Below, one piece after another: positions 10,311 to 24,989 of a stretch of DNA of 64,000 nucleotides; position 1 is the first letter of the stretch; every line of letters starts with the position of its first letter. The stretch is from Flavobacterium haoranii (lineage in GTDB: Bacteria > Bacteroidota > Bacteroidia > Flavobacteriales > Flavobacteriaceae): positions 930,001 through 994,000 of the forward strand of contig NZ_CP045292.1 in assembly GCF_009363055.1 (NCBI RefSeq), written 5' to 3'. Position numbers and translations under genes: made by a program. A model generated the notes under the pieces. That model saw only the letters and a program-made list of their open reading frames with translations. It did not search any database and was not told the DNA's origin.

Positions 10311-11765
10311 ATGATTCCACAAGAAACTATTGTTGCTTTAGCTACGCCTTCAGGTGCTGGTGCCATTGCTGTTATTCGTCTTTCGGGTAAAGACGCTATT
10401 ACTATTGCTTCGCAAGTATTTCAATCGGTTTCTGGGAAAGATTTAAGTAAACAAAAAACGCATACCATTCACTTAGGACATATTGTTGACCCTTCGACAG
10501 GCTCAGGGCAAGTTGGAAAAGTTATTGACCAAGTTTTAGTTTCTATTTTTAAAGGTCCGAATTCGTATACAGGTGAAAATGTAGTGGAAATTTCGTGCCA
10601 CGGTTCTACTTTTATTCAGCAACAAATTATTCAGTTATTGCTTCGTAAAGGAGCGAAAATGGCTCAGGCTGGTGAATTTACCTTGCGTGCTTTTTTGAAC
10701 GGGAAATTAGATTTATCGCAAGCGGAAGCTGTTGCTGATTTGATTGCGAGTGATAATGAAGCTTCTCATCAAATTGCGATGCAGCAAATGCGTGGCGGTT
10801 TTAGTAATGAAATTGCGAAATTGCGTGAAGAATTGTTGAATTTTGCTTCGTTAATTGAGTTGGAGCTCGATTTTAGTGAAGAAGATGTGGAATTTGCAGA
10901 TAGAACGGCTTTTCACGATTTATTAAACCGAATTGAGTTTGTTTTAAAACGTTTGATTGATTCGTTTGCTGTAGGTAATGTGATTAAAAACGGAATTCCG
11001 GTAGCGATTGTAGGCGAACCCAATGTAGGAAAATCGACTTTATTAAATGCATTATTGAACGAAGAACGAGCGATTGTAAGTGATATTGCTGGAACTACAC
11101 GTGATACTATTGAAGACGAATTGGTAATTAACGGAATTGGTTTCCGATTTATTGATACGGCAGGAATTAGAGATACAGAAGATCATGTAGAAAGCATTGG
11201 TATTAAAAAGACTTTTGAGAAGATTGAACAAGCGCAAGTGGTTTTATATTTGGTTGACGGTTTACAGTTAACAGTTAACAGTCAATTAGATAATTTTATT
11301 ACTGAAATTGGAAAAATTCAAAATCAATATCCGCAGAAATCTTTAATTGTTATTATTAATAAAAGGGATTTGTTATCTGAAGAAACATTTACTGCAATAA
11401 ATACTCGAATTGATAATTATAAAGCTGAACTTTCAACAGTAAACCGAAAACTATTTACTCTGTTTATTTCTGCTAAACAAAATATTGGTATTGAGGATTT
11501 GAAAAACACTTTACTTTCGTTTGTAAATACTGGCGCTTTACGTAATAATGAAACTATTGTAACCAATACACGTCATTATGATTCTTTATTGAAAGCTTTA
11601 GAGGAAATTCAAAAAGTTAAATGGGGATTAGATGCGGGCATTTCTTCGGATTTAATGGCTATTGATATTCGCTCTGCTTTGTATTACTTTGGTGAGATTA
11701 CAGGCGAAGTTACTAATGATGAGCTTTTAGGTAATATTTTTGCTAATTTTTGTATCGGGAAATAG
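10311..11765 (+). CDS. mnmE: tRNA modification GTPase MnmE
   Basis: A 484-residue protein that with MnmG makes the cmnm5 modification of wobble uridine in tRNA. The start at 10311 (MIPQETIVALATPSGAGAIAV) is chosen because the family begins here. G1 is GEPNVGKST (residues 235-243), G3 DTAG (282-285), G4 NKRD (350-353), and the C-terminal CIGK farnesyl-like motif is intact. Two oddities are visible: a PSTGSGQ insertion (61-67) encoded by a palindromic repeat, and a segment at 317-326 encoded by AGTTAACAG repeats between G3 and G4. The 3' end is repeated downstream as a likely attachment site. Confidence 0.98.
   Translation: MIPQETIVALATPSGAGAIAVIRLSGKDAITIASQVFQSVSGKDLSKQKTHTIHLGHIVDPSTGSGQVGKVIDQVLVSIFKGPNSYTGENVVEISCHGSTFIQQQIIQLLLRKGAKMAQAGEFTLRAFLNGKLDLSQAEAVADLIASDNEASHQIAMQQMRGGFSNEIAKLREELLNFASLIELELDFSEEDVEFADRTAFHDLLNRIEFVLKRLIDSFAVGNVIKNGIPVAIVGEPNVGKSTLLNALLNEERAIVSDIAGTTRDTIEDELVINGIGFRFIDTAGIRDTEDHVESIGIKKTFEKIEQAQVVLYLVDGLQLTVNSQLDNFITEIGKIQNQYPQKSLIVIINKRDLLSEETFTAINTRIDNYKAELSTVNRKLFTLFISAKQNIGIEDLKNTLLSFVNTGALRNNETIVTNTRHYDSLLKALEEIQKVKWGLDAGISSDLMAIDIRSALYYFGEITGEVTNDELLGNIFANFCIGK
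10490..10508 (+). repeat. Palindromic repeat inserted in frame within mnmE
   Basis: CCCTTCGACAGGCTCAGGG, an imperfect palindrome known to me as a widely dispersed bacterial repeat string. Translated in the mnmE frame it gives PSTGSG, a stretch that flavobacterial MnmE proteins I recall do not have. The insertion keeps frame. Confidence 0.75.
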
Positions 11766-11786
11766 AAAGAAAATTCTTGCTTTTTT
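11751..11786 (+). repeat. Direct repeat copy 1 (likely attachment site, mnmE 3' end)
   Basis: 36 nt covering the last five codons of mnmE and the bases after its stop. They match 13083-13118 at 34 of 36 positions by hand count. The core TGTATCGGGAAATAG encodes CIGK-stop. The same gene end (trmE/thdF 3' end) is the known integration site of Salmonella genomic island 1. Confidence 0.7.
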
Positions 11787-11838
11787 ACTTTACATAAATA
11801 TTATCTTTAGTTCTAAAAAATAGCAACATTTTTGCAAT

Positions 11839-11860
11839 ATGTAAACAAATTTGTTTACAT
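11839..11860. promoter_or_regulatory. Perfect palindrome, likely autoregulatory operator
   Basis: A 22-bp perfect inverted repeat with core TGTAAACAAATTTGTTTACA. It lies 7 bp before the antitoxin ATG and overlaps the -7 box. HTH antitoxins typically repress their own promoter from such a site; this is inferred from position and symmetry. Confidence 0.75.
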
Positions 11861-11863
11861 TTG
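11856..11863 (+). promoter_or_regulatory. -7 box of the antitoxin/toxin operon
   Basis: TACATTTG, a TAnnTTTG match, with a TTG at 11832-11834 (21-nt spacer). Only four bases separate the box from the ATG at 11868, so the mRNA is probably leaderless. Confidence 0.65.
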
Positions 11864-11867
11864 TACT

Positions 11868-12362
11868 ATGAGTTTTCAATTAGAAAAATATAAAGGCATT
11901 CATCCAGGAATTATTTTAGAGCGTTTATTAGCTAAAAAAGAGATTTCTCAGCGTCCTTTTGCCCTTTCTATAGGAGAGCATCCACAAACCATTAATGCCA
12001 TTACAAAAGGAAGAAGAAGCCTCACTACTGCATTGGCTTTAAAAATAGAAGCTGCTCTGGGTTTAGAAGAAGGTTCATTAGCTTTTCTTCAAACCTATTA
12101 CGAAATTGCTCAGGAAAAAAAGAAAGTACTTCACACTCCTAACCTATCTAATTTACGAAAATCACTTTTTTGGGATACTGATATTTCTAAAATTAATTGG
12201 GACAAACAATATAGAGCGATTATTCAACGTGTTTATGAAAGAGGTAATGAAGCTGAAAAAAAAGAGTTAAAAGCTTTTTATGGAGAAGATAAAATTAAAA
12301 CAGCTCTTCGTAATACTAGAAGAAAACCTTACACTATCTATAAAAACAAACAAAAAGCATAA
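11868..12362 (+). CDS. HTH antitoxin with C-terminal DUF6922-like domain
   Basis: A 164-residue protein. Residues ~9-67 form a HigA/XRE-type helix-turn-helix (HPGIILERLLAKKEISQRPFA and TINAITKGRRSL). The C-terminal part (LFWDTDISKINWDKQYRAII, then RVYERGN and FYGED) resembles the DUF6922 domain often paired with AbiEii-type toxins in Bacteroidota. The ATG at 11868 is preferred over an upstream TTG because the promoter box ends at 11863. Its stop overlaps the toxin start by one base. It probably binds the palindrome at 11839-11860 and neutralises the toxin. The family call is good; the antitoxin role is inferred. Confidence 0.82.
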   Translation: MSFQLEKYKGIHPGIILERLLAKKEISQRPFALSIGEHPQTINAITKGRRSLTTALALKIEAALGLEEGSLAFLQTYYEIAQEKKKVLHTPNLSNLRKSLFWDTDISKINWDKQYRAIIQRVYERGNEAEKKELKAFYGEDKIKTALRNTRRKPYTIYKNKQKA

Positions 12363-13003
12363 TGCTCTATTATAATACCGTAAATGATTTACTAAAAAAT
12401 AGTCTCATTACTTTAATGAATGCACCTATTTTTGAAAATTTCAGACTAGTAGGCGGAACTGCTTTGAGTTTACAAATTGGGCATAGAGAATCCATTGACA
12501 TTGATTTATTTAGTGATGCTGATTATGGTACAATTAATTTTGAAGGAATTGAAAATTTTTTGAGAACTACTTTCAATCATGTTAATTCGTTAAATGCTCC
12601 ACCTGCATTGGGGAAATCTTATTTCATTGGTGATGATGAAAACAATACTATTAAACTAGATGTTTTTTATACAGATACTTTTATCCAACCTTGTATGGAA
12701 GAAGAAGGAATAAGAATGGCTACCATTGAAGAGATTATTGCTATGAAGGTTGATGTCATTCAAAGAGGTGGAAGAAAAAAAGATTTTTGGGATTTACATG
12801 ATTTGCTTGATTCTTATTCTATTAGTCAAATGATAGAACTACATGAAAAGAGATATCCTTATGACCATAATGAAGAATTAATTATTAAAAACTTCACTCT
12901 TTTTGACCAAGCAGATGATGATTTTGATCCAATTTGTTTCAAAGGTAAATACTGGGAATTTATAAAAGAAGATTTTGAAGAAATAATAAATAATAATTTT
13001 TAG
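12362..13003 (+). CDS. Nucleotidyltransferase AbiEii/AbiGii-family toxin
   Basis: A 213-residue protein with the nucleotidyltransferase signature GGTALSL (residues 31-37) followed by HRESIDIDLF, giving the catalytic aspartates D46 and D48. The later MATIEEIIAMKVDVIQRGGRKKDFWDLHDL segment is typical of the AbiEii/AbiGii family. Such proteins act as toxins that modify RNA or protein with nucleotides, and several serve in phage defence by abortive infection. Translationally coupled to the antitoxin (TAATG). The pair is the whole cargo of the small element between the direct repeats at 11751 and 13083. Confidence 0.88.
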   Translation: MLYYNTVNDLLKNSLITLMNAPIFENFRLVGGTALSLQIGHRESIDIDLFSDADYGTINFEGIENFLRTTFNHVNSLNAPPALGKSYFIGDDENNTIKLDVFYTDTFIQPCMEEEGIRMATIEEIIAMKVDVIQRGGRKKDFWDLHDLLDSYSISQMIELHEKRYPYDHNEELIIKNFTLFDQADDDFDPICFKGKYWEFIKEDFEEIINNNF

Positions 13004-13023
13004 GCTTTTTAATACCTATTTGT

Positions 13024-13118
13024 AACACCTTTTGTACACTTTTACCCTTTCAAACCCTTATAAATAACGATAAAAAAGATATTGTATCGGTAAATAGAAA
13101 GAAAATTCTTACTTTTTT
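13024..13118 (+). repeat. Element right end plus direct repeat copy 2
   Basis: 13083-13118 repeats the mnmE 3' end and following bases (34 of 36). The preceding 13024-13082 contains AACACCT, GTACACTTTTACCC and ACCCTTATAAATAA, which look like recombinase arm-type sites. The whole 13024-13097 aligns without gaps to 24587-24660 (about 60 of 74 identical by hand count). No integrase gene is adjacent. Confidence 0.7.
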
Positions 13119-13148
13119 TATTTGTGAAATTTAAAAGACAAATAAAAT

Positions 13149-13805
13149 TTAAATTAATCGCTTTTTTCTAGCGAGTGCAATGGCTTCGGTTTTAGAGTGT
13201 ACTTGTAATTTATGATAGATATTTTCGATGTGTCTTCGAATAGTTGACGGAGCAACGATTAAGTTTTCTGCTATTGAAGTGTAGGGAAGCCCTGTTGCTA
13301 ATTGTTCCAACACTTCAATTTCACGGTTGGTGAGTTTAATAGTTTCATCCTCTTCTTCGGTTTTTGTTTCTAAAGGTAAACGAAGTAGATTAAGCGTTTT
13401 GAGTGCAATGGACGGCGTCATTACTGCACCTCCTTCTCTAGTTTGTAAATTAGCATTATATAATTCTTTTGGCTCGGTATCTTTTAGTAAATAGCCATCA
13501 GCTCCTGCTTGAATAGCATTAAAGATATTTTCATCATCGTCAAAAACAGTGAGTACAATAATCTTTATTTGCGGGTATTTTTGTTTGACTAAAGCAGTAG
13601 TTTCAATTCCGTTTAACTTTGGCATTTCAATATCCATTAAGATGAGATCAATTAGACGATTATCTGCTAATTTTTCCAAACATTCAATGCCGTTATTAGC
13701 GGTAAAGGAAATAGTTATTTCATCAAAAAATGAAAGTTTATCTCTAACACTTTTTATTAGAAAATTATTATCGTCTATTACAGCTATTTTTGTTTTCATA
13801 GCCAT
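13149..13805 (-). CDS. NarL/FixJ-family response regulator
   Basis: A 218-residue DNA-binding response regulator. The receiver domain has the acidic pair D11-D12 and phosphoacceptor D58 (LILMDIEMP). The LuxR-type HTH lies at ~150-215 (LTNREIEVLEQLATGLPYTS, then STIRRHIENIYHKL). Encoded 33 bp after the TPR sensor kinase on the same strand, so the two form a two-component system. Targets are unknown; the adjoining genes for exported proteins are candidates by proximity. A second ATG two codons in is an equally good start. Confidence 0.95.
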   Translation of the reverse strand: MAMKTKIAVIDDNNFLIKSVRDKLSFFDEITISFTANNGIECLEKLADNRLIDLILMDIEMPKLNGIETTALVKQKYPQIKIIVLTVFDDDENIFNAIQAGADGYLLKDTEPKELYNANLQTREGGAVMTPSIALKTLNLLRLPLETKTEEEDETIKLTNREIEVLEQLATGLPYTSIAENLIVAPSTIRRHIENIYHKLQVHSKTEAIALARKKRLI

Positions 13806-13838
13806 TTTATGTTGTTAAGCGATAGTCAAAATTATGGA

Positions 13839-15650
13839 TTAAACTTCGAATTTAATTGATGTTCCTTTTCCTTTTTCAGAATTTATGATGAGTTCGTTAC
13901 CTAATTCTAAGGCACGTTTTCTCATATTCAGTAATCCGTTTCCTGGTTCTACTTCTTGTTCTACAAACCCGTTTCCATTGTCGATAATTTCAAAATAAAT
14001 TTGATTATTGGTTTTACTAATGTTAATTTTTATCTCAGTTGCTTCCGAATATTTTACGGCGTTGTTAGTTGCTTCTTGAATAATGCGAAAGATGTTTAAT
14101 CCTTGTAGACCAGAAAAGGATTGCTCATCTGCAATATTAGCGTCTGATTTTAACAAGATTTGTATGTTTTGATGCGATCGTTTTGCTTTTTCCATGAAAT
14201 TGGCAATACGACTTTTTAAATCATTTATGGTAATTGTTGGTTTATTCATGGCCCAAATAGTGTCGCGAAGCTCTTGAATGGTTTCTTTTGCAAATGTTCC
14301 AATACTAGTTAATTTATTACTTACTGGTTCGTTTGTGTCTGAAATATAGTATTTAATAGTATCGATTGCCGAAACGATAAATGATAATTGTGCGCCAATA
14401 TTATCATGCAAATCTCTTGAGATGGTAAGACGTTGTTCTTGTAACTGGTTTTGACTTTCAATTTTTTCTAAAGCTAAAAGTAGTTCGTTGTCTTTTTGTT
14501 GTTTTATGTTTTTTAAGACTTGTTGCTTGTAAAGAATAAAACCTAACAAACCAATAATGATAGCTAATGCAATCAGTCCGAAAATCCATTGATTACGAAT
14601 TTCAAGTGCTAGTTCTTTTTCAACAATTTTTTTTTCTTTTTCAGCTGTTTCGTATTTGGTTGCAATTTCTTCTACATCTTTGAGTTTTTGTACCGTATAC
14701 AAACTATCGTTTAAGACGTTGAAATTTTTTAAACTTTCGAATGCTTTTTCGTAATTTCCTTGTGCCTGATAGTTGCCCGTGATTTGCTCGTAGTTGTATT
14801 TTTGAATATCAAGAAAGTTGATTTTCTTGGCAACAGCATTACTTTTAAGAAAATAGTCGTTTGAAGTTTTGTATTGTTTTGTCTCTTTGTAATATTCGCC
14901 AAGTGCTGTATAATTCAACATCGTAGCAAAATCGTCTTTTAATTTTTCCCGAATTTTTAACGCTTCTAATAAGTAGTTTTCTGATTTTTTGTAATCTTTG
15001 ATTAATAGTTGATTGTATCCCAAAAATTCAAGAGCATAACCGATTCCTACACTATCCTTTCTTTCTTGTTGAATGCGTAATGACTTTTGAAAACGCATGT
15101 TTGCTTCTTTGTAATCTTGAAAATCATCTCTATAAACAACGCCGCTTTCGTTGTTAATACGAGCGATTCCTTCTAAATTGTTTTCAGCTTCATAGAGTTT
15201 TAATGCTTTATCATAAAATTCTAAAGCTCGCTTGGGTTGACGAAGTTTACGATACATACGAGCCATATCGTCGTACAGCAAGCCTAATTTTTCAACATTT
15301 TTAGTTGGTTCCAAGATCTTTAAAGCACGATAATAATATATAGAGGCACTATCAATTTTTCCTTTTTTAGCTAATGAAAGCCCAATAGTTCGTAAAAAAT
15401 CACCTTTGTTTATGTTATCATTTTTTTTATAGGCAATGCTATATCCAAATTTTGCTAATTCAATAGTTTCGTCAAATTTGGTTGCATAGATTTCTTTAAT
15501 GTTTTTTTGAAGTAAATCGATTTTTTGGTTGTAATCATTTTTCTTATTAACCAATTCTATTATACTATCTGATAAAGTTTGTTTTTGAGCAGTTGCATGT
15601 AATGAAAGTAATATTACACAAATTATCATTATAATTTGCTTAATTCTCAT
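13839..15650 (-). CDS. TPR-containing sensor histidine kinase (HisKA_3/LuxR-partner type)
   Basis: A 603-residue membrane kinase. A signal-peptide-like N-terminus (ending HATA) precedes tetratricopeptide repeats at ~60-330 placed in the periplasm. A transmembrane helix (WIFGLIALAIIIGLLGFIL, ~355-373) follows, then a coiled coil. The HisKA_3 dimerisation domain has phosphoaccepting H415 (DLHDNIGAQ), and an HATPase_c domain holds the N-box EATNNAVKYS and DNGNGF. This is the NarX/DesK-like class that pairs with LuxR-type regulators, consistent with the downstream gene. The signal is unknown; TPRs suggest a protein or peptide partner. Confidence 0.94.
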   Translation of the reverse strand: MRIKQIIMIICVILLSLHATAQKQTLSDSIIELVNKKNDYNQKIDLLQKNIKEIYATKFDETIELAKFGYSIAYKKNDNINKGDFLRTIGLSLAKKGKIDSASIYYYRALKILEPTKNVEKLGLLYDDMARMYRKLRQPKRALEFYDKALKLYEAENNLEGIARINNESGVVYRDDFQDYKEANMRFQKSLRIQQERKDSVGIGYALEFLGYNQLLIKDYKKSENYLLEALKIREKLKDDFATMLNYTALGEYYKETKQYKTSNDYFLKSNAVAKKINFLDIQKYNYEQITGNYQAQGNYEKAFESLKNFNVLNDSLYTVQKLKDVEEIATKYETAEKEKKIVEKELALEIRNQWIFGLIALAIIIGLLGFILYKQQVLKNIKQQKDNELLLALEKIESQNQLQEQRLTISRDLHDNIGAQLSFIVSAIDTIKYYISDTNEPVSNKLTSIGTFAKETIQELRDTIWAMNKPTITINDLKSRIANFMEKAKRSHQNIQILLKSDANIADEQSFSGLQGLNIFRIIQEATNNAVKYSEATEIKINISKTNNQIYFEIIDNGNGFVEQEVEPGNGLLNMRKRALELGNELIINSEKGKGTSIKFEV

Positions 15651-15719
15651 AAGGTACTGTTTTTGAATAAAAAATAATAGGCATAAATATATTAAAATTA
15701 TCCAAGATTTTTCTTAGTA

Positions 15720-16043
15720 CTATTTCATTTGATTAGATGTAAGGAAGTAGTAATTGCTTTTTTTAGTATGCTCTATAAATTTTAAAGGAATTTCATTTTC
15801 ATTTGAACCTGAAGGAAATTTACGTTCAAATTCTGTTAAGCGATTGTGAATAACAGAATTAATTTCCTTTTGTATATCGATATTATTTTGGGCTTTACAT
15901 TGCATTTGATTTCTTATTTCAATGGCTTTATTAAGTTCACTATTATCTAAATTAGCATAAGCTTCAAAATATTTTTGAATTAGATGTATCATTAGGAAAA
16001 GAAATCCTATTATAATTAAGTAAAAAATAGCTATAGCAATCAT
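15720..16043 (-). CDS. Small single-span membrane protein of unknown function
   Basis: A 107-residue protein with one N-terminal transmembrane helix (IAIFYLIIIGFLFLMIHLI) and a charged, helical remainder (ELNKAIEIRNQMQ, IHNRLTEFERKFP). I do not recognise a family. It lies 1 bp after the end of the 352-residue membrane protein gene and likely shares its mRNA. A role together with that protein is possible but unproven. Confidence 0.7.
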   Translation of the reverse strand: MIAIAIFYLIIIGFLFLMIHLIQKYFEAYANLDNSELNKAIEIRNQMQCKAQNNIDIQKEINSVIHNRLTEFERKFPSGSNENEIPLKFIEHTKKSNYYFLTSNQMK

Positions 16044-16044
16044 A

Positions 16045-17103
16045 TTAGTTGATTTTCTTTTTTAATCGAATCCATTTAACAATTACCCAAATTGCAATTC
16101 CAATGCCAATAAACCCAATGATGAATGGTGCAAAAATCACAAATAGTGTCAGTAATCCAGGTAAAGTTCCTTCAATAGTACTTTCTACTTCATAAGGATT
16201 GCCCAATTCAATATTGGAATAAGTTAATGATTCAAATGATAATTGACTCATTTGATCGATTTTGGCAAACAGCTCATTGGTTTGTTTTATTACATTTTCA
16301 AAGGAAAAATTTTCGTTGAATTCTGAATAGTTGATAATAAGATTGTCTTTTGGTGTTGGTGAGAAATTTGTTTTTTGTCCTACAAAAATTTGATATTGCG
16401 TATTGAATTTAAAACCAAATCCGTTAGAAATACCTTGTACATTTTCAGGTGTTAAGCCATCCATTAATTGAATATAAAATTCCCCTTTTTCAATATTGTT
16501 TTTCCAAACACTTCCACTTTCTAATAAGTAAATGAAAGCGTTTCTTTTTTCAATGTTATATCCTTTTCTAATTCTGGCTTCATTTGTATTAACTATGAAA
16601 TAAACTTCGACCTTTTGGATTTCATTGGGAGCAAACTGCATTTGCCATACTTTCCAATTGTCACTAAAAGCATTGATATTTTGAGTATTTGTATTTATTT
16701 CGGGATGATTTTCTTGTTCTAACAAAAGCCACTTGTTATTAGCTTTTATTTTAAACTGACTTAAAGAGTCTAAAATAATTTGGTTTAGATCGTTTTCTCC
16801 ACCAGAATAAATTCCATTAATAGGATAGCCCATTTTGAATTGTAAATGTTCATTCGTTGTATTTTTAAAAACATAGGTCCCTTTTACAACTGCAAAACCT
16901 TTGTACAACTGAATAAAAATGCGCTCTTGTTGCATTTGTACTTTTTTAAAAGTGTTTGCATCTTCAGGATATAACATCGTATAAACTGTTCCTCCTGCAT
17001 TCCATATTCCTGGTTGGGCTGCATTGGCGAAGGTTTTTTGAGCTAAGGTAATTGTAATCAGCAAAAATGCTGTACATAGAATTTTATGTAGTGTCATTTT
17101 CAT
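16045..17103 (-). CDS. Exported membrane-anchored protein of unknown function
   Basis: A 352-residue protein with a signal peptide (to about residue 26, ...TFANA), a ~270-residue beta-rich extracytoplasmic region, and a C-terminal transmembrane helix (FVIFAPFIIGFIGIGIAIWV) before a basic tail (RLKKKIN). The layout resembles DUF4424-like proteins (N-terminal secretion, YVFKNTTNEHLQFKMGYP-like beta segments, C-terminal anchor), but I hold that match as weak. It is part of the single-strand block of exported proteins downstream of the two-component system in coordinate order. Confidence 0.7.
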   Translation of the reverse strand: MKMTLHKILCTAFLLITITLAQKTFANAAQPGIWNAGGTVYTMLYPEDANTFKKVQMQQERIFIQLYKGFAVVKGTYVFKNTTNEHLQFKMGYPINGIYSGGENDLNQIILDSLSQFKIKANNKWLLLEQENHPEINTNTQNINAFSDNWKVWQMQFAPNEIQKVEVYFIVNTNEARIRKGYNIEKRNAFIYLLESGSVWKNNIEKGEFYIQLMDGLTPENVQGISNGFGFKFNTQYQIFVGQKTNFSPTPKDNLIINYSEFNENFSFENVIKQTNELFAKIDQMSQLSFESLTYSNIELGNPYEVESTIEGTLPGLLTLFVIFAPFIIGFIGIGIAIWVIVKWIRLKKKIN

Positions 17104-17115
17104 ACCCCTATTGTA

Positions 17116-18138
17116 TTAAGGTAAAAATTGTTGTAAAAGTGCTTCAAATATGTGTATCTTTTTATGAAGAAAGTTTGTTGTACCAGTTGTACTTCCATCG
17201 ACATATTCAATTTTAAAAAAACCAATTCCTACTATTGTTTTAGTTTTAACATCCACTTCGGCTTCGGTAATAATATTGTTGTGCTCATCTCTTAAAAACA
17301 ATTTCATGTTGAAAGGAATGAGTTCGTCTTTGTTTTTATCATAAGCCTGAAAAGTCTGTTCGATATATTGTTTCAATCCAAATGGCAAGCTGTCTGTTGG
17401 TGCTTCCTTTTCAAACCGCTGAATACCTTTCATTAGCTTGCTTTGAGTTTTGCTGTTTTCAATTAACTTAAATTTTATTTCGCTAAACTCATTTCCCATT
17501 GCATCTTTAAGGTAAACAGTTGCATAAAAATAGCTTTGTGGCTCTACGTAAGATATAATTTCGCGGTCTTCGAGATAGAAATAGTTGGTTATAATATCGG
17601 CTTCGCCCGGAACTTTTTGTCGATGCATTTCTTTGTATAAATTTCCTTTTTGGCTGTAATGACGTTCCGTAATGGATTGTGTACCGTCAATATCGGCCTC
17701 TATTTCATTAAGTAAATTTTTCTTGTAATGGAATTTGATATGGCTTTTGCTTCCATCTTTAAATCGAATTTTTTCTTCAGTAATTTTTCCCTGTTTGTCG
17801 TAACGATACGAATATTTTCTGTTTAGATACGGATTGCTATGTTCCCAAATTTCTTGATGCAAGCGATTATTTTTATATACTGCTTTTGATTTTGCCCAAC
17901 TTTCATCAAGAAAACTCTGGTTTTCATAAGAACTGATATTTCCGTCAGAGTTAAAACGATGTATTACTTTTTCTACTTTTTCAATACTATCGCCATCAAT
18001 ACTGTAGAAAATTTGTTCTACTTGTGACACCTGTTTTTTAAAGCCATAATCTTGATAAGTGATATTAGGTAACGATTGTCCTTTACTTCCCACAAAAGCA
18101 AAAAATATTAGGATTGAAAATACTGTTTTACATTTCAT
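17116..18138 (-). CDS. Secreted YD-repeat-like protein, paralogue A
   Basis: A 340-residue protein with a signal peptide (ending FVGSKG). The mature part starts with the motif YQDYGFKKQVSQVEQIFYSI. Degenerate YD/RHS-like strands (YRYDKQGKITEEKIRF, HYSQKGNLYKEMH) follow. The start motif recurs in the 315-residue protein at 20861 (YGFQKQLDHAKIAYY), and a third protein at 21821 has a similar plan. No enzymatic residues are recognised. Full-size RHS toxin features are absent, so these are short secreted or periplasmic beta-proteins of unknown role. Confidence 0.7.
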   Translation of the reverse strand: MKCKTVFSILIFFAFVGSKGQSLPNITYQDYGFKKQVSQVEQIFYSIDGDSIEKVEKVIHRFNSDGNISSYENQSFLDESWAKSKAVYKNNRLHQEIWEHSNPYLNRKYSYRYDKQGKITEEKIRFKDGSKSHIKFHYKKNLLNEIEADIDGTQSITERHYSQKGNLYKEMHRQKVPGEADIITNYFYLEDREIISYVEPQSYFYATVYLKDAMGNEFSEIKFKLIENSKTQSKLMKGIQRFEKEAPTDSLPFGLKQYIEQTFQAYDKNKDELIPFNMKLFLRDEHNNIITEAEVDVKTKTIVGIGFFKIEYVDGSTTGTTNFLHKKIHIFEALLQQFLP

Positions 18139-18141
18139 TTT

Positions 18142-18651
18142 CTATGGTTTATTGTTGTTGTTTATTGCTTGCTGAAATTCTTCCTTAGTAAATGTTTTCA
18201 GTGGATTTATTTTTTTGATTAATTCCATCACAAACCATTGGTACATCTTTTCGTATTGATTTTTAATGGTTGGATTGGAAAGATTTTCTGTATAATTTAA
18301 CACATCGCCATTAGCTAAAATAACCTCCATTTTTTCTATTTTTATTCTAAAATAGGATTTCATGAATTGGTAATGAATTTGAATTTTAAGTGCGAACCCG
18401 TCTTCATATTTTTTTGAAAAAATCAATTTGTAATCTTGTTCCGAAACTTTTTCTGTTCTTGAGAAAATAAAGCCATTCCATGCCATTAAAGCTTCATAGT
18501 CCTCAATTTTAGGGTGAATTGTTTTAAAATTTTGCCCTTTTTGATAATAACCGTATAATTCGGTTGTAGACGAATAGTTTGATTTTTGTCCGTAAGAAAA
18601 AATGCTAATTAAATGTAAAAGAAGAAATACTATTATTAAGTTTTTATTCAT
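18142..18651 (-). CDS. Small secreted protein of unknown function
   Basis: A 169-residue protein with a cleavable signal peptide (NLIIVFLLLHLISIFSYGQ). The mature region includes YKLIFSKKYEDGFALKIQIH and ends in an Asn-rich tail. No domain recognised. The gene start overlaps the stop of the WG-repeat gene by 4 bp, and it is followed after 3 bp by paralogue A, so all three are translated from one transcript. Confidence 0.65.
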   Translation of the reverse strand: MNKNLIIVFLLLHLISIFSYGQKSNYSSTTELYGYYQKGQNFKTIHPKIEDYEALMAWNGFIFSRTEKVSEQDYKLIFSKKYEDGFALKIQIHYQFMKSYFRIKIEKMEVILANGDVLNYTENLSNPTIKNQYEKMYQWFVMELIKKINPLKTFTKEEFQQAINNNNKP

Positions 18652-19550
18652 TTTAACACGTTTCCTTTTTTGTCAAATTTTACTATTGTACCGTCCGGTT
18701 TTCTTGCGTGGATTGTGTTATCGTCTGCCCAATAGGTTTCCTCAAATTTTAACGGAATAATTTCTTTTCCGGTAGTATCTATATAGCCCCAGTTATCTCC
18801 AATGCCTACACACGCCAGCCCTCTATTAAAATCGTGAATGTCGTCATATTTTACCGCAATGATTTCTTTGCCTGTTTTGTCTATTGTACCCCATTTTCCT
18901 GCTAACGATACTTTTGCAAATCCGTCTTTGAATCGTCGTACATCATCGTATTTTGCAGGAACAATTTCTTTTCCGTTTTTATTCACAAAACCAAATTTAT
19001 CCTCAAGTCTAATGCTTGCTAAACCATCACTAAATTCTCCAATAGAATGATACTTAAAAGGGACAATCTCTTTCCCGGTTTTATCTATGACACCGCATTT
19101 ATAGCCAATGGAAACTACGGCTATTCCGTCATAAAAATCATATCCCAGACCATATACACCGTAAGGAGATGGCTCATCGTATTTTAAAGGAAAGACTTCC
19201 TTACCGTTTTTATCTATAAATCCCCATTTAAAATCGAGAAGCACACCAGCCAATCCGTCAGAAAAAGCGTTTATTTTTTCGTATTTCAGCGGCGTTAGCT
19301 CTTTGCCTGTTTTGCCGTCTATTAGTCCCCATTTCTCGTTAATGGCAACCCGGTACACTTCTTCATCTTTGGTTCGGGAAGCGTCTTTAGTTCTGTAATC
19401 ATCATATTTTGGTTTTATGATAACTTTTCCATTTTGGTCTTTAAAGCCTGCTTTTCCGTTTTCTTTAAATATTACTAATTGCTGTGCCTGTACGGCTGTG
19501 GCTATAAACGTACATATAGCGATAGCTGTTGTTTTTAAGATTGTTTTCAT
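18648..19550 (-). CDS. Secreted WG-repeat protein
   Basis: A 300-residue protein with a signal peptide (ending TAVQA) and about seven WG (KWG) repeats of ~35 residues. Each has the form WGxIDKxGKEIxPxKYDxI, for example KFGFVNKNGKEIVPAKYDDV. WG-repeat domains form beta structures found in bacterial exported and conflict-system proteins; a ligand is rarely known. The repeats are well preserved, which argues that the gene is functional. It is the central member of a closely packed gene string (overlapping neighbour at 18651). Confidence 0.88.
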   Translation of the reverse strand: MKTILKTTAIAICTFIATAVQAQQLVIFKENGKAGFKDQNGKVIIKPKYDDYRTKDASRTKDEEVYRVAINEKWGLIDGKTGKELTPLKYEKINAFSDGLAGVLLDFKWGFIDKNGKEVFPLKYDEPSPYGVYGLGYDFYDGIAVVSIGYKCGVIDKTGKEIVPFKYHSIGEFSDGLASIRLEDKFGFVNKNGKEIVPAKYDDVRRFKDGFAKVSLAGKWGTIDKTGKEIIAVKYDDIHDFNRGLACVGIGDNWGYIDTTGKEIIPLKFEETYWADDNTIHARKPDGTIVKFDKKGNVLK

Positions 19551-19556
19551 TTTATG

Positions 19557-19796
19557 TTATTTATCGTTATAAAGTCTGTCGTATGCCTGATTTGCGAAAG
19601 TCTGATACTCTTCTTTCGTCATTAAAGATTTTACAATTTTTGTGATAGGAGCTGCGGCAGTAAGCTCTGTTAGAGGTAATAAATAAACCAATTCAAATGA
19701 CATTTTTACATCTTTAGGGTAGAGATAATGGTACAATTGATAAAAATAGGTGGCAATTTGGGCATCATTTTTATTTAGATTCCGTTGTGCTTTCAT
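19557..19796 (-). CDS. Small hypothetical protein
   Basis: A 79-residue protein with no signal peptide and one moderately hydrophobic stretch (FELVYLLPLTELTAAAPI). The start codon overlaps the stop of the upstream 347-residue gene by one base and the stop lies 6 bp before the WG-repeat gene, so it is embedded in the operon. I recognise no family. Coupling to the upstream gene suggests a paired function. Confidence 0.6.
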   Translation of the reverse strand: MKAQRNLNKNDAQIATYFYQLYHYLYPKDVKMSFELVYLLPLTELTAAAPITKIVKSLMTKEEYQTFANQAYDRLYNDK

Positions 19797-20839
19797 TAGA
19801 CTGTACAGTTGCTGTTGCCCTTCGGATTTACCTTTTTGAACGCTTCACTAAAAGAATTGGCGTCTGCTACATATTGACTGTTGGCATTTGAGCCTGTGGC
19901 TGGTGTGGTTTGCTTGGAAGTGGTGTTATTTTTTATCTCTAAATATTTAAAAAGGTCTAAAATGAAGTTTTCGATTGCAACATTGTATAAATTTCTTAAT
20001 TCTTCTTTTGGATGTTTTTTTGAAATAGCCTGTGAACCAACCGTGAGGTATTTGAGTTTTATTGTTAAACTTTTGTCACCGATTTCATAATCCAAGCCTA
20101 AAACAATATTTCCTTGTGCCGACTTAACAGTCCAAGTTCCTGAAAGAAAGTCGGGTTTCTCTTCAAGTTTTAAAAAAGAGGCTCCAGCTTTACTTTTGAT
20201 GTCGATGTAACTTTTTATTTTGTGTAAAACGACTTCTTTACTGCTCAATCCATTGGTGTAATCATATCGTCCGTTATAATATCTGGTTTCGGTAGTTTGC
20301 TCTGAAGTGGTTGATTTAGTTTGAGTGGTGGTTTTGGGGGAAGAAGTTGTTTCTTTAGTAATATTTTTATCAATATTCATAAATGCTAAAACATCGTGAA
20401 TATGTGTATCTTCTTCAAACTTATAAAGTTTAACAATTTGCTGATCAACAGATTTTGGACGTAACATTATAACATTAGTTTCATCTTTATAATAGGTGGA
20501 CAACAATAAATAAATCTCTATTCTATCAGAATAAAAGGTGTATTGCACATTAGAAACTACATAACCACTTCCCAGCAAAGTATTTTTCCAGTTTGCCTTG
20601 ATTGTATTACCTTCCAATTTTCCATTGTATTGTAATTTATCATCTTTGTAAACCTTTAAAAATTCGTAAAATTTCTTTAATGCGGTTTCTTGGGTATATT
20701 TTCCATCATAATACCGAATCTCCTTAGTCTGACCAAAGGAAGAAATGCTCGTAAATAATATAAGGAAAAATGTGATTGCTAGTTTATAAATGTTTGCTTT
20801 GGCAAATCTAAATTTATAATAAGGTCTGAAGTATTTCAT
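19796..20839 (-). CDS. Exported protein with internal duplication
   Basis: A 347-residue protein with a signal peptide at ~15-36 (LAITFFLILFTSISSFGQ). It contains two related ~120-residue modules. The first begins RYYDGKYTQETALKKFYEFL and the second RYYNGRYDYTNGLSSKEVVL; both continue with a KxYxDxK-like segment and a beta-rich YTFYSDRIEI / YEIGDKSLTI strand. They are joined by a Thr/Ser-rich linker (SPKTTTQTKSTTSEQTT). A second TT-rich linker precedes the C-terminus. The family is unknown to me. The linkers suggest an extracytoplasmic protein with two flexible binding modules. Confidence 0.65.
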   Translation of the reverse strand: MKYFRPYYKFRFAKANIYKLAITFFLILFTSISSFGQTKEIRYYDGKYTQETALKKFYEFLKVYKDDKLQYNGKLEGNTIKANWKNTLLGSGYVVSNVQYTFYSDRIEIYLLLSTYYKDETNVIMLRPKSVDQQIVKLYKFEEDTHIHDVLAFMNIDKNITKETTSSPKTTTQTKSTTSEQTTETRYYNGRYDYTNGLSSKEVVLHKIKSYIDIKSKAGASFLKLEEKPDFLSGTWTVKSAQGNIVLGLDYEIGDKSLTIKLKYLTVGSQAISKKHPKEELRNLYNVAIENFILDLFKYLEIKNNTTSKQTTPATGSNANSQYVADANSFSEAFKKVNPKGNSNCTV

Positions 20840-20860
20840 ACTTTTAGGATTTGTGTAGTT

Positions 20861-21808
20861 TTATTTAATGTGTTTCACTTTCATATCAAAAATCAAGTCA
20901 TATTCAGTGCTACCACTCTCGGTACCATCTGCATATTTTAGGTACTGAAAAACCATGCGTTTTTGTGAGCCAAACCTTCTGTTAAACTGAATTCTTTTAA
21001 TCCAATCGCCTTGCTCATTACGAGCTTCTGCTGGAATATCAAACACAATTTTACTTGCAGTTTTTTTGAAAGTTTCTGCTAAGACTTTATTGTTTTTTTG
21101 GTAAGAGGTCCTTAATTTTAATGCATATTCAAAGGGATTTTCTATATCTTCCAACTCATATTCCATTCTTTGTATTTTGTCATAAAACGTAATTCTTTGT
21201 TTTTTGGAAATGGTAAAACTCGCAAATATATCATCGCCTTCATACATATAACAACTTTCAATAATACGACCTGATTTTTCAGTTGTTGTTTCCTTAATGT
21301 AGTTGTATTTGTGAACAAATTCTAAAAATACTTTAGTGCCCGTTGCATTTCTTCTTGTCATGGTTTGTATTGAGCCGCCATCATCATACGTGAACGTATC
21401 GGTAAACTCTGAGTATTTTCCATTAGACGTAATTTTAATTAAATTTCCTTTAGCATCGTAGTGCATTTTTTGAGAACTATTGAAGTTTTCTGCTGAGGCT
21501 ATGGTATTGATGCTATCTAAAACACCGTTTTTATAAACATAATTTTTAGCCGTTTCGCTCGCAAACTTTCCATAAATTCGGGTGTATTTTTGTATAATAT
21601 GTCCGTCTTTGTTAAACGAATACACTTCTGCCATTACGGGTTCGTATCCCAAACTGTCACTTTTGTAATAGGCAATTTTAGCATGATCGAGTTGTTTTTG
21701 AAAACCATACGATTGCCAATAGGTTTTGGGTGGCGAAATATGGTGGTAATCTTGCGCACTCACAAAAAAGCCCATTGATAATAGAAAAAAAATTACGCTT
21801 AATTTCAT
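20861..21808 (-). CDS. Secreted YD-repeat-like protein, paralogue B
   Basis: A 315-residue protein with a signal peptide (ending FFVSA). Its early motif YGFQKQLDHAKIAYY matches paralogue A (YGFKKQVSQVEQIFY). Both then run through YD-like strands (MHYDAKGNLIKITSNG, FTYDDGGSI) and end in a region containing YADGTESGSTEYD versus YVDGSTTGTTNF. The similarity over the full length indicates gene duplication followed by strong divergence. Function unknown. Confidence 0.7.
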   Translation of the reverse strand: MKLSVIFFLLSMGFFVSAQDYHHISPPKTYWQSYGFQKQLDHAKIAYYKSDSLGYEPVMAEVYSFNKDGHIIQKYTRIYGKFASETAKNYVYKNGVLDSINTIASAENFNSSQKMHYDAKGNLIKITSNGKYSEFTDTFTYDDGGSIQTMTRRNATGTKVFLEFVHKYNYIKETTTEKSGRIIESCYMYEGDDIFASFTISKKQRITFYDKIQRMEYELEDIENPFEYALKLRTSYQKNNKVLAETFKKTASKIVFDIPAEARNEQGDWIKRIQFNRRFGSQKRMVFQYLKYADGTESGSTEYDLIFDMKVKHIK

Positions 21809-21820
21809 TGAATTTTGTTT

Positions 21821-22723
21821 TTAGTTACGGTATTCGATAGTTCTTCTGGTAAGGGTGTTAAACTCCCATTTGCCATTTTTCATTTTGTAGTTTTTGCGTT
21901 CTATCCAGTTGCCATTAGCATCATACGTATATTCAAAACGCTCTTTATCTTGACCATCAACAACAATTTTCTCCAAATCTTGGTAATCGAATTCATCACC
22001 GAAAACATCTACTTTTCTGGTTTTGTAATGGTATTTGGTAACGCTACTAATGTCAAAGTTGGTAATCGTTTTTTCTGTTTTCTTTCCGTTTTTATCCAAT
22101 ATTAGACTGTCTGTCTGGTCTAAAACATCATCTATAAATATTTTTTTTATGCGTAATGTTGTACCATCTGCATTCGATTTATACCAAAACTCAGATTTTT
22201 TACCTTCTGTATTTCCTGGAGCAAATACGGTTTCTTTGGTATAATCATCATCATTTCCTTCATATTTGACTTCAAAAACATCGGGTTGGGCTACATTCAA
22301 TAAATAACGCGTTACTTTTATTTTTTCTACATCAAAAGAGCCATAAGTGTATTGCCATTCTTCAATGGTTTTTAGAGTGTTTGGATTTGTAATTTTTATT
22401 GATTTTAATTTTCTGGAATGGGCATCAGCATAATTAAATCTGATATCAAAATCAGCATAACTGTTATTGTAATTTACATATTGATAATCAGTTAACTGAT
22501 AGGTACTGTTCCACTTTAAATAAATTTCTAAAATGGGAAATTCTTCGTTTTCATCAACTGCAATTTCTTTGGTTGTCAAACTTTTAACTTGTGAAAAATC
22601 AATTAAATCCACTTGATTTCTAAACTCCCATTCAGTTGGATAATACGGAATATAGTCTTGAGCAACTATGTTATTAATTGATGCTAAAAGTAATATTGAA
22701 AATAAGTATTGTATCGTTTTCAT
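21821..22723 (-). CDS. Secreted YD-repeat-like protein, more distant paralogue C
   Basis: A 300-residue protein with a signal peptide (ending NNIVA). It contains short YD-like elements (FEYTYDANGNWIERKNYKMK near the C-terminus and KYHYKTRKVD). The gene plan and location (12 bp from paralogue B) suggest common ancestry with A and B, but the early YGFKKQ motif is replaced by EFRNQVDLID. No catalytic motif is seen. Confidence 0.68.
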   Translation of the reverse strand: MKTIQYLFSILLLASINNIVAQDYIPYYPTEWEFRNQVDLIDFSQVKSLTTKEIAVDENEEFPILEIYLKWNSTYQLTDYQYVNYNNSYADFDIRFNYADAHSRKLKSIKITNPNTLKTIEEWQYTYGSFDVEKIKVTRYLLNVAQPDVFEVKYEGNDDDYTKETVFAPGNTEGKKSEFWYKSNADGTTLRIKKIFIDDVLDQTDSLILDKNGKKTEKTITNFDISSVTKYHYKTRKVDVFGDEFDYQDLEKIVVDGQDKERFEYTYDANGNWIERKNYKMKNGKWEFNTLTRRTIEYRN

Positions 22724-22744
22724 GGCTGTATTTTTCTGATATAA

Positions 22745-23371
22745 TTATTTAAAATTGTGATTGTCTGATGAAAGTTTTTGATTGAGTATTTTTAAAAATA
22801 AAAAAGGAAGAACGATTAATACTGAACCCCATTTATTTTCAGGTGTAAAGGTTTCTGGGAATTGTTTTACCAGAAAAAATAGGATAACTCCACCTACAAT
22901 TATAGAAACATGAAGCACTATCATATTTGGGTTAAATGCTCCAAAATAAATAGTTAAGGGTTGCTGTTTTCGATGTAAATAAATGCGTTCAACCAATACA
23001 AAAATCAAATTGATATTGAAAAACCAATTCTGAAAAAATAAAACTTCCATGTTAGTGAATATGATTTCACTATTACTAGATGCTGCTATAAACCCAAAAA
23101 AGACTACTAAGAAAACCCAATAAATACCCATTGAAAACAAGCCTCCAGTAAAATCAGATGATTTCCAATCTTTGTTACTCGCATTTGGATTTTTTTTAGC
23201 ATAAAATTTGTCAATTATTATTCGAATGAGTTCATTGCACCAAAAGAAATACATCAAATAGAATACGGTGGTTTGCCCGTTTAGTACCGACAATAAGGTT
23301 AGTATCAAAAAGATGATAAAATCCCATTGTTGGTACTTTTTTAATTGTTGTTCAAGAATTGATTGTAACAC
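22745..23371 (-). CDS. Polytopic membrane protein (DUF6498-like)
   Basis: A 208-residue protein with about five transmembrane helices (FIIFLILTLLSVLNG, TVFYLMYFFWCNELI, GIYWVFLVVFFGFI, MIVLHVSIIVGGVILFFL, VLIVLPFLFLKIL). It is similar in plan to the DUF6498 family; that match is from memory and weak. The start codon is GTG, as no ATG lies near. It is flanked closely by genes for exported proteins on the same strand. Confidence 0.65.
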   Translation of the reverse strand: MLQSILEQQLKKYQQWDFIIFLILTLLSVLNGQTTVFYLMYFFWCNELIRIIIDKFYAKKNPNASNKDWKSSDFTGGLFSMGIYWVFLVVFFGFIAASSNSEIIFTNMEVLFFQNWFFNINLIFVLVERIYLHRKQQPLTIYFGAFNPNMIVLHVSIIVGGVILFFLVKQFPETFTPENKWGSVLIVLPFLFLKILNQKLSSDNHNFK

Positions 23372-23392
23372 AACTAATAATTTTCAATAAAT

Positions 23393-24361
23393 TTATTTCT
23401 TATAAAATTTGGAATAGAATTCTTTAATATGATGTTCTAAAAATACATCTAAAGCTTCTGTTACTCCAGCTTCATATTTATTAGCGTCAGCAGGCACTAA
23501 AACAACTTTAGAACTAGTTGTGTTTTTTGCTGTGTATAGAGTTCCGAATGCTGTTTCCACTCCTTTATTATCATAATCGGATTGTGCATATGAAGTAATC
23601 TTTTCTTCTTTTATAACTCCATCAATCTCCAAGTCTTTTTTTATTATTCCTTGGTATTCTGCTAATGGAGAGCCTCCAATTTTATTTCTTCCTATTACAA
23701 AATGTATAATCGTATTTTGTTCAGACATAACCAAGTTAGTTTTTGCATTAACAGAAGCTCCAAAACCTTTGTTAAAATCACCCATTTTAACAAAATCAAT
23801 ATACACATCTACACGAATAACAGCGGCATCATTTAGTTCGGTAGATAGTTTTGTGTATGGTGCGTAAGACCCTTTTTCTTTATAATAAAAGCCCGTGTTT
23901 TGAGGATGCACAAGAACAGCACCTTCTTTTGTTGGTGAAGGAATCATAGCAAGGTAAGTACTATATTTGTAATCTTTATAATAATTAGTGTTTTTTGCAA
24001 CCTCCGGATTTAAGATATTAAAACCTTGCGCCTTTAAATCGGCAACAAAATTAGCATAAGAATCATTGGTTATTTTTTCGATTGTTGCTGTAGGAATATC
24101 TAAACCAACAGCAAGAGATGCTTTGGCTTTTCCCATAATTCCTTTCACAAAACTTGTTCCTCCTTTATTTGTAGTTGATTCTTCTGCATAAACTTGAAAA
24201 TGCACAGCAAAATCAGCTATGAATACTTCTTTTGAATCAAATTTTCTGCTTTCTAGAGTTTTAGGACCACTTTTTCCAGGTTTAAATTCACCTAATGTTT
24301 GAGCATTTAAAAGTGCTATATTTGAAAAAAGTAGCATTAAAATAATTAGTTTAGTTTTCAT
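23393..24361 (-). CDS. Secreted protein of unknown function
   Basis: A 322-residue protein with a clear signal peptide (LIILMLLFSNIALLNAQ) and no other membrane segment. The mature protein is mixed alpha/beta (AVGLDIPTATIEKI, DLKAQGFNIL, AAVIRVDVYIDFVKMG). I recognise no domain. It is the first gene of the single-strand block that ends at 13149, so the promoter for part of that block should lie in 24362-24590, though no TAnnTTTG box is seen there on the minus strand. Confidence 0.65.
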   Translation of the reverse strand: MKTKLIILMLLFSNIALLNAQTLGEFKPGKSGPKTLESRKFDSKEVFIADFAVHFQVYAEESTTNKGGTSFVKGIMGKAKASLAVGLDIPTATIEKITNDSYANFVADLKAQGFNILNPEVAKNTNYYKDYKYSTYLAMIPSPTKEGAVLVHPQNTGFYYKEKGSYAPYTKLSTELNDAAVIRVDVYIDFVKMGDFNKGFGASVNAKTNLVMSEQNTIIHFVIGRNKIGGSPLAEYQGIIKKDLEIDGVIKEEKITSYAQSDYDNKGVETAFGTLYTAKNTTSSKVVLVPADANKYEAGVTEALDVFLEHHIKEFYSKFYKK

Positions 24362-24586
24362 AATGTAATATTTTGAAGATGATACTGCAATATTATTTTA
24401 AAAAATATTTTATTGAAATAGGTCAGATGCACTATTTTTTAATTTAAATTTGAAAGATTTAAATTAAAAACTTAAAGTTATAATTCAACTATTACTTTCA
24501 ATTTATTTCACGTTTGGGTAATATTTATACTTTGGACTAAAAAAAGATATCATTGGATATTAATATGATATTTTAACCTTATTTTT
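24362..24586. other. Gene-free AT-rich DNA upstream of the exported-protein block
   Basis: No convincing coding frame. The only structure noticed is an inverted repeat, ATATCAT...ATGATAT (about 24547-24572), just before the element-end repeat. No consensus promoter box was found on the minus strand. Confidence 0.5.
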
Positions 24587-24660
24587 AACACCTCGAGCAC
24601 ACCTGTACCCTCTTTAACCCTTATAAATAAAGAGAAAAAAGATATTTTATTGGCAAATAG
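24587..24660 (+). repeat. Diverged third copy of the element right end
   Basis: Aligns without gaps to 13024-13097 (about 60 of 74 identical by hand count), including AACACCT, ACCCTTATAAATAA, AAAAAAGATAT and a core TTTATTGGCAAATAG in place of TGTATCGGTAAATAG. This marks the likely far end of the 13.1-24.6 kb block. Confidence 0.65.
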
Positions 24661-24736
24661 CTTTATTTCCAAAACTTTAATATGAAAATAATAAGGTTTT
24701 TGATTAAATTTTATATTTTAAATTACAGAATTATCT

Positions 24737-24931: not shown

Positions 24932-24989
24932 TTCATTTGGTTTAAAATCTTTATAGATGGATATCAGTTAGAATTTTATCCATTTAAAA

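What the first reader, a model, noticed from the sequence alone, without database searches (positions are those of the whole stretch)
11751..24660. mnmE 3' end used as attachment site with two stacked integrase-less elements
The last codons of mnmE and following bases (11751-11786) recur at 13083-13118 (34/36). The DNA before the second copy (13024-13097) recurs at 24587-24660 without gaps (about 60/74). This gives three ends and two units: a toxin-antitoxin cassette (1.3 kb) and an 11.5-kb block with a two-component system and exported proteins. Both share a right end with arm-like strings (AACACCT, GTACAC, ACCCTTATAAATAA). The mnmE (trmE/thdF) 3' end is the known SGI1 attachment site, so this is a parallel use in Bacteroidota. 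No integrase is present, so they may be mobilised in trans.
Basis: partly seen in the sequence, partly recalled or inferred. Interest (0 to 1): 0.75.

Follow-up and report, generated by a model that had tools for sequence, protein, structure and literature searches.

The report
Stacked mobile-element remnants behind mnmE
In this Flavobacterium-like genome the end of the tRNA-modification gene mnmE appears to be a landing site for mobile DNA, and two units that lack their own integrase, one of them little more than a toxin-antitoxin gene pair, sit there in a row.

Summary
The reading mostly holds. A tyrosine recombinase of one family starts within 2.5 kb behind mnmE in 20 of 55 unnamed relatives and 35 of 80 named loci (overlapping sets). 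The right end recurs in 22 further genomes of 398 at E<1e-10. Integrase-bearing elements end in the same kind of right end, and arm motifs agree between left and right end in 9 of 10 elements checked. Relatives with the host flank right behind mnmE give empty-site comparisons. The toxin-antitoxin unit sits at mnmE in two other genomes; most of the 11.5-kb block recurs in one more, ending in the core. The window units lack an integrase, any detectable remnant and left arm motifs, and the genome lacks a close relative of the integrase. I read them as decayed, CIME-like elements stacked by accretion, with the addiction module surviving. Mobilisation in trans is possible but unproven.

The parts
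10311..11765 (+). mnmE (trmE/thdF), target gene; its last codons form the core of the attachment site
   Evidence: Pfam MnmE_helical, TrmE_N; last codons and stop shared with the right-end cores
11751..11786 (+). left attachment site: mnmE end plus about 21 nt of the E1 left end
   Evidence: 34/36 with 13083-13118; same left end after a right-end core in G311
11766..13097 (+). unit E1, about 1.33 kb, integrase-less, toxin-antitoxin only
   Evidence: same unit directly behind mnmE in G367 (mnmE end to right-end core 1330 nt vs 1335 nt here); no integrase piece at E<=0.1
11868..12362 (+). antitoxin candidate: HTH_3 + DUF6922
   Evidence: Pfam HTH_3 1.6e-8, DUF6922 1.4e-24; HigA antidote model just under its cut-off
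12362..13003 (+). toxin candidate: AbiEii nucleotidyltransferase
   Evidence: Pfam AbiEii 8.5e-21; PADLOC AbiEii 2.8e-9; no relative among solved structures at E<=0.01
13018..13097 (+). right end R1 of E1: arm-like repeats, CCCTTATAAATAA stretch and core
   Evidence: profile match 2.3e-21; it was one of the model's seeds
13098..13143 (+). left end of E2, sharing about 30 nt with the E1 left end
   Evidence: repeat D3; not in G278, whose E2 match starts at window 13144
13098..24660 (-). unit E2, about 11.5 kb; genes on the minus strand
   Evidence: block shared with G278 from 13144 to the core at 24651, except 19142-20860; end of the RR gene behind TA and right end in G256, where the contig then stops
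13149..13805 (-). response regulator (Response_reg + GerE)
13839..15650 (-). TPR histidine kinase (HisKA_3 + HATPase_c)
15720..24361 (-). eleven cargo ORFs; several look exported (reading of the N-termini), one has WG repeats, one a weak DUF4424 match, nine no Pfam match
24581..24660 (+). right end R2 of E2
   Evidence: profile match 1.7e-21, a model seed; right end and, by eye, about 230 nt before it resemble G032, which has other cargo
24661..35856 (-). DNA beyond the array: status open; the 2'-5' RNA ligase-like gene at 35957 recurs 3.4-14.2 kb behind mnmE in 4 of 55 relatives

Best explanation
The last codons of mnmE are the attachment site of a family of integrative elements carried by Flavobacteriaceae and some more distant Bacteroidota. 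An intact element carries a tyrosine recombinase just inside its left end (mostly about 90-1,300 nt behind mnmE), left arm sites before that gene, cargo, and 13-28 kb from mnmE a right end made of arm-type repeats (GTACACCT and variants), a conserved CCCTTATAAATAA stretch and a copy of the mnmE end; some of these stretches may hold more than one element. Elements insert again at the same core, so they stack (accretion). E1 and E2 keep right ends of the GTACACCT type but have lost the integrase, the left arms and any recognisable transfer gene: CIME-like remnants. E1 is what remains when everything but the right-most cargo, an AbiEii-type toxin-antitoxin pair, is deleted; its addiction would explain why it survives. 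Shown by comparison: sites, shared ends, integrase location, empty sites, recurrence of E1 and of most of E2. Inferred: the recombination itself, decay by deletion, the role of addiction.
For: 25 of 26 mnmE-side integrases form one family at >=40% identity linkage; the other is an 82-aa piece cut by the end of a stretch. 26 of 30 integrase loci of the genus set have mnmE beside them. Arm motifs agree between left and right end in 7 of 7 elements and in 2 of 3 more. Empty vs filled site: G046 vs G364, G012 vs G381, G060 vs G032, F. pokkalii vs G005. TA is the last cargo before the right end in longer stretches of G005, G393, G220, G236, and stands alone at mnmE in the window and G367. 13 of 17 right ends with mnmE on the fetched stretch have no integrase between. 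TA DNA is 81.3% identical to the CROMO_A_74 MAG although mnmE is only 70.5%.
Against: No integrase fragment survives in E1 or E2, so decay from an integrase-bearing ancestor is not directly seen. E1 and E2 share about 30 nt of left end that is not the left end of the integrase-bearing elements, which could mean a distinct non-autonomous type. No excised circle or transfer was observed. One right end (own third copy) and the E2 block of G278 were found with no mnmE on the fetched stretch. The MAG with the TA at mnmE lacks a detectable right end in 10 kb and shares the TA-flank junction with G311, so that copy may have moved by homologous recombination.
Confidence: 0.72

Rival explanations
1. 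E1 and E2 are not decay products but a standing class of non-autonomous units with their own conserved ends, moved in trans by the integrase of an incoming mnmE element, much as cassettes or satellites are.
For: Same about 30-nt left end in E1 and E2 and in G311; E1 of nearly the same length in the window and G367; TA found next to mnmE (window, G367, CROMO_A_74) and behind another element's right end (G311); 13 of 17 mnmE-to-right-end stretches have no integrase.
Against: Left arm motifs are missing; right arm motif has one mismatch in all three own copies; own genome lacks a close relative of the integrase; TA is ordinary right-hand cargo in longer stretches.
Confidence: 0.2
2. The repeats are generic intergenic or host sequence and the genes are ordinary chromosomal content.
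For: A third right-end copy lies away from mnmE, and E2 of G278 lies beside a partial tRNA sequence, with no mnmE on the fetched 20 kb; 16 of 37 right ends could not be tied to mnmE.
Against: Strong right ends are few (29 at E<1e-10 in 398 genomes, at most three per genome); in all 17 with mnmE on the stretch it is on the same strand; integrases and empty sites.
Confidence: 0.03
3. The arrays spread mainly by homologous recombination between mnmE loci (exchange of the whole flank), with site-specific recombination only in the distant past.
For: G311 and CROMO_A_74 share the TA plus the same flank junction without a right end; G256 and the window share the TA-right end-RR order.
Against: Alignment from the core on in G046 vs G364, and open integrase frames in many genomes.
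Confidence: 0.05

Closest known systems
SGI1-related elements at the 3' end of trmE/mnmE (Gammaproteobacteria)
   Same: Same target gene end, 18-bp att sites, tandem arrays, secondary site, toxin-antitoxin cargo (PMC9035990 and PMC5006074 passages; PMC2297512 abstract; table passage in PMC5704250)
   Different: Window units have no integrase; the integrases in relatives carry Arm-DNA-bind_5 + Phage_int_SAM_5 (one integrase scanned). No sequence comparison with the SGI1 integrase was made here.
CIMEs (cis-mobilizable elements) and accretion, as in ICESt1-related elements
   Same: Integration and transfer genes gone, flanking att-like sites kept, tandem with other elements at one target gene (definition in PMC5704250 passages)
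   Different: Left arm motifs are missing too; E1 is only 1.3 kb; ICE or IME origin not demonstrated
Riemerella anatipestifer 10K genomic island
   Same: Island with tyrosine integrase and direct-repeat att sites, integration shown in the lab (PMC6764341 passages)
   Different: Target is an Arg-tRNA gene, not mnmE
AbiE type IV toxin-antitoxin systems
   Same: AbiEii nucleotidyltransferase domain
   Different: Partner matches HTH_3 + DUF6922 instead of an AbiEi-type antitoxin (AbiEi design recalled)

Membership tests
Integrative elements of the mnmE 3'-end site | Boundary at the mnmE end with a core repeat at the far end | tested here: met
Integrative elements of the mnmE 3'-end site | Own site-specific recombinase | tested here: not met
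   none in E1 or E2; present in some relatives with the same kind of right end
CIME | Integration and transfer genes lost | tested here: met
   no integrase; no relaxase or transfer domain among 13 E2 and 2 E1 ORFs in Pfam; 9 of the E2 ORFs have no Pfam match at all, so unknown transfer genes are not excluded
CIME | attL and attR retained | tested here: inconclusive
   core and right end kept, left arm motifs not found
CIME | Derived from an ICE or IME and mobilised in cis | not testable with these tools
   no remnant left; needs mating or excision assays
SGI1 family | 3' end of trmE as attB | tested here: met
SGI1 family | SGI1-type integrase and backbone, IncA/C-dependent mobilisation | not tested
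   window units hold no integrase; no SGI1 sequence was fetched
Integron gene cassettes | Foldable attC site | tested here: not met
   RNAalifold on 6 right ends predicts no pair
AbiE TA | AbiEii nucleotidyltransferase | tested here: met
AbiE TA | AbiEi antitoxin | tested here: not met
   antitoxin gene matches HTH_3 and DUF6922 only in Pfam and no AbiEi model in PADLOC

The most novel reading that the evidence does not exclude
A class of integrase-less units with conserved ends, down to a 1.3-kb toxin-antitoxin unit, lives as parasites of mnmE-targeting integrases in Flavobacteriaceae: any incoming element with the GTACACCT arm code supplies recombinase in trans, so one addiction module travels alone between species.
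Probability: 0.15. Interest if true: 0.7.

Novelty: new variant of a known kind. Interest (0 to 1): 0.5.

Why it matters
It extends the mnmE 3' end from a known island site of Gammaproteobacteria to Bacteroidota, with an integrase family whose subtypes have their own arm motifs. That gives a practical way to find and bound islands in these genomes: read the sequence behind mnmE and look for the right end. It also gives a series from integrase-bearing element to a lone toxin-antitoxin pair, which makes the idea testable that addiction modules are the last part of an island to go.

Tried and rejected
Chance repeat: rejected. Foldable attC-like site: no consensus pair on 6 right ends. tRNA gene as target in the window: ARAGORN finds none. 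A strict pattern over 199 genomes found only the window's own R2, so I turned to a profile. My first right-end profile took the G032 copy in the wrong orientation; it was replaced by properly oriented sequences. A shared 8-mer test between left and right ends was noisy (within 2-8, between clades 0-5); the motif test replaced it. Its motifs were chosen after seeing the left ends, so it is descriptive; and since most right ends of the profile carry GTACA[CT]CT, the informative pairs are the three of other types (G171, G219, G058). Weak profile matches (253 of 398 genomes at E<=0.05) are mostly treated as chance; I examined those down to about 1e-7 to 1e-6 only. Identity of E2's function: 9 of its 11 cargo ORFs have no Pfam match; six of these nine, and the one with the weak DUF4424 match, were scanned in NCBIfam without a match; no structure prediction was run. 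Phage records: 23 hold an integrase relative at under 60% identity, the listed ones mostly unannotated faecal records; not followed. Searches of held papers for mnmE or trmE islands in Flavobacterium or Bacteroidetes listed no paper that by title or abstract start treats this site in this phylum; only open-licence papers are held.
Full report
OBSERVATION. The repeats are as described. 11751-11786 and 13083-13118 agree at 34 of 36 positions and 13024-13097 and 24587-24660 at 60 of 74 without gaps (wider families). The next best ungapped match of the 74-mer in the window is 38/74 and 30 mononucleotide shuffles reach at most 43. In the whole genome (one contig, 2,871,082 bases) a 135-nt query around the second site finds the third site (E=2e-16), the mnmE end (7e-10) and one further copy of the right end at 1,626,816 (2e-14). 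The latter lies beside what looks like a partial tRNA (read by eye; ARAGORN calls no tRNA there), with no second core in 20 kb upstream at five mismatches or fewer: a stranded right end.

GENES. mnmE ends at 11765. E1 holds a pair: HTH_3 + DUF6922 (11868-12362) and an AbiEii nucleotidyltransferase (12362-13003). E2 holds a response regulator, a TPR histidine kinase and eleven further ORFs on the minus strand; of the eleven, one has WG repeats, one a sub-threshold DUF4424 match and nine no Pfam match. The genome has 10 Phage_integrase matches, none in the window. Relatives of the mnmE-side integrase are absent from it at E<=1e-25 (the own integrases compared are about 26-33% identical over 250-380 aa, a few short or small matches higher), and no piece of that family is found in 11761-36000 at E<=0.1.

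HOT SPOT. I took the DNA behind mnmE from 55 relatives of the same genus. Of 61 genomes searched, own included, 58 had mnmE; G002 and G023 had it but were not fetched. A tyrosine recombinase starts within 2.5 kb behind mnmE on the same strand in 20 of 55 (18 of the 49 with at least 2.5 kb of sequence); one more, G038, has it 4.4 kb away. In 80 named mnmE loci it is 35 of 80 (33 of the 74 with at least 2.5 kb), in Flavobacterium, Myroides, Aquimarina, Winogradskyella, Gelidibacter, Arenibacter and others. The two sets overlap (for example G364 is F. segetis). Of 26 integrases compared, 25 form one family at 40% identity linkage. In 199 genus genomes 87 have a relative at E<=1e-25; of 30 loci held for the best, 26 have mnmE beside the integrase. 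In 247 genomes of the phylum 28 have one at E<=1e-40; of 29 loci newly held there 7 have mnmE beside it, two of them outside the window's class, and 22 do not, so the wider family is not bound to mnmE. The one integrase scanned has Arm-DNA-bind_5, Phage_int_SAM_5 and Phage_integrase domains.

RIGHT END. A sequence-only profile from six right ends (three own, G032, G027, G005) was searched in 398 genomes of the genus: 29 matches at E<1e-10 in 26 genomes, of which the six seeds match by construction, leaving 23 matches in 22 further genomes (with stricter filters and a limited number of scored candidates per genome). I examined 37 right ends (34 in relatives, some down to E of about 1e-7 to 1e-6, and the three own). 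For 17 of them mnmE is on the fetched stretch, on the same strand and upstream, 1.3-17.8 kb away; an integrase lies between in 4 of 17. 'Upstream' is partly by design: most stretches hold about 18 kb upstream and 2 kb downstream; the shared strand is not. Four more (G187, G164, G171, G364) have mnmE and the integrase on the same contig beyond the fetched stretch. For the remaining 16 no mnmE was seen and I cannot say.

ARM CODE. Left ends of the integrase-bearing elements carry short repeats before the integrase gene. GTACA[CT]CT occurs twice in all seven left ends of the clade of G358 and in none of the other 24 examined; others have GTACCACA or GTACAACA, CATCACA, TTGTTGCCC, GTACCTTA or GTACCTTT, or none of the listed motifs. 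In the 7 elements where I have both ends the right end carries the same motif (5 GTACA[CT]CT; G171; G219). Of three more pairs G364 (GTACA[CT]CT) and G058 (CATCACA) agree; Arenibacter has none of the listed motifs. The window's right ends belong to the GTACACCT type but with one mismatch in each own copy, and the first 260 nt of E1 and of E2 hold none of the five motifs. The single GTACAYCT inside E2 (18241) lies within a gene.

EMPTY SITES. DNA just behind the right end of one genome lies just behind mnmE in another: G364 vs G046 (from the core on, 71% over 353 nt), G381 vs G012 (both from nt 55, 81% over 820 nt), G005 vs F. pokkalii (77% over 479 nt, from 119 and 53 nt), G032 vs G060 (72% over 2.2 kb, from 85 and 131 nt). 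mnmE of G381 itself was not on its stretch. Other right ends are followed by sequence that elsewhere begins an integrase-bearing element directly behind mnmE (G220, G306, G242), which is stacking.

E1 ELSEWHERE. The toxin-antitoxin pair stands alone between mnmE and a right end in G367 (90% and 84% aa; mnmE end to core 1330 nt against 1335 nt here). In G311 it follows the right end of another element, with the same left end as in the window; no right end of its own is seen in the 0.77 kb that follow. In the CROMO_A_74 MAG it directly follows mnmE; TA DNA is 81.3% identical to the window's while mnmE DNA is 70.5%. That argues for transfer; but G311 and this MAG share the TA-flank junction without a right end, so homologous exchange is possible, and a MAG can be mis-assembled. 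In G005, G393, G220 and G236 the pair is the last cargo before the right end of a longer stretch; in G324 a further 0.6 kb intervenes; G325 and G388 have broken copies.

E2 ELSEWHERE. G278 holds 10 of the 13 E2 genes at 63-94% aa, in order; three are missing at E<=1e-6 (15720, 19557, 19796), two of them in a stretch that differs. DNA similarity starts at window 13144 and ends in the core; the block lies beside what by eye is a partial tRNA, and no mnmE is on the fetched 20 kb. G256 shows toxin end, right end and the end of the response regulator gene in the window's order, with the core lost and the held sequence ending there. G032 shares the right end of E2 and, by eye, about 230 nt before it, but no protein of E2 at E<=1e-8.

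READING. Site-specific integration at the mnmE end by this integrase family, with stacking, is well supported by comparison; the reaction itself was not observed. The window units are best read as remnants without integrase and left arms, held at the site, with the toxin-antitoxin pair as the durable part. A trans-mobilised class with its own ends stays open because E1 and E2 share a left end and because stretches without integrase are common (13 of 17). An integrase-bearing relative (G358) carries VapE-like and primase genes and an oligonucleotide cyclase with a 2TM SLATT effector, so some of these elements carry defence genes.

KNOWN. SGI1-related elements use the same gene end, form tandem arrays and carry toxin-antitoxin modules (passages of PMC9035990 and PMC5006074; abstract of PMC2297512). 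CIMEs and accretion are described in a review of IMEs (passages of PMC5704250). The Riemerella 10K island uses an Arg-tRNA gene (passages of PMC6764341). I found no held paper on mnmE as a site in Bacteroidota (listings), which says little about subscription journals.

On recounting I mended: nine, not eight, cargo ORFs without Pfam match; E2 shown nearly whole in one further genome, not two; distance range 13-28 kb; the fetching bias of 'upstream'; three added arm pairs.

Noticed in passing
G000:C1:1626816-1626894 (L003 1501-1579), outside the window: Third right-end copy, away from mnmE, beside a partial tRNA-like sequence; no left core found in 20 kb upstream.
   Followed up: partly
L170 (G278) about 3290-3453: The E2 block of G278 also lies beside a partial tRNA sequence (by eye a tRNA-Met 3' half), as the stranded own copy does.
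   Followed up: no
L160 (G358) 7258-12429: Integrase-bearing mnmE element with VapE-like, primase, SMODS cyclase and SLATT effector genes: a satellite-like, CBASS-like cargo.
   Followed up: partly
L061 (G032) 6915-12265: The G032 stretch between mnmE and right end carries a CHAT-domain protein and an OmpA/ZorB-like protein but no integrase.
   Followed up: no
window 24990-34771: Beyond R2: PA3715-domain protein, two-component propeller protein, BspA-type LRR protein with a weak Por secretion tail, TPR kinase plus LytTR regulator; may be a further variable block.
   Followed up: partly
window 9910-10130: Simple near-repeats (cagtttacagtcg; ggtttgtggttgatggttt) between the gene before mnmE and mnmE.
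   Followed up: no
G045:C1:2495372-2495653 and G019:C1:214863-215729: Broken integrase pieces of the family: one just behind mnmE in G045, one on another contig than mnmE in G019, so decay of these integrases does occur.
   Followed up: partly
L208 (G134), L216 (G087): mnmE-end-like cores before an integrase but with no mnmE in the locus: possibly second elements of arrays.
   Followed up: no
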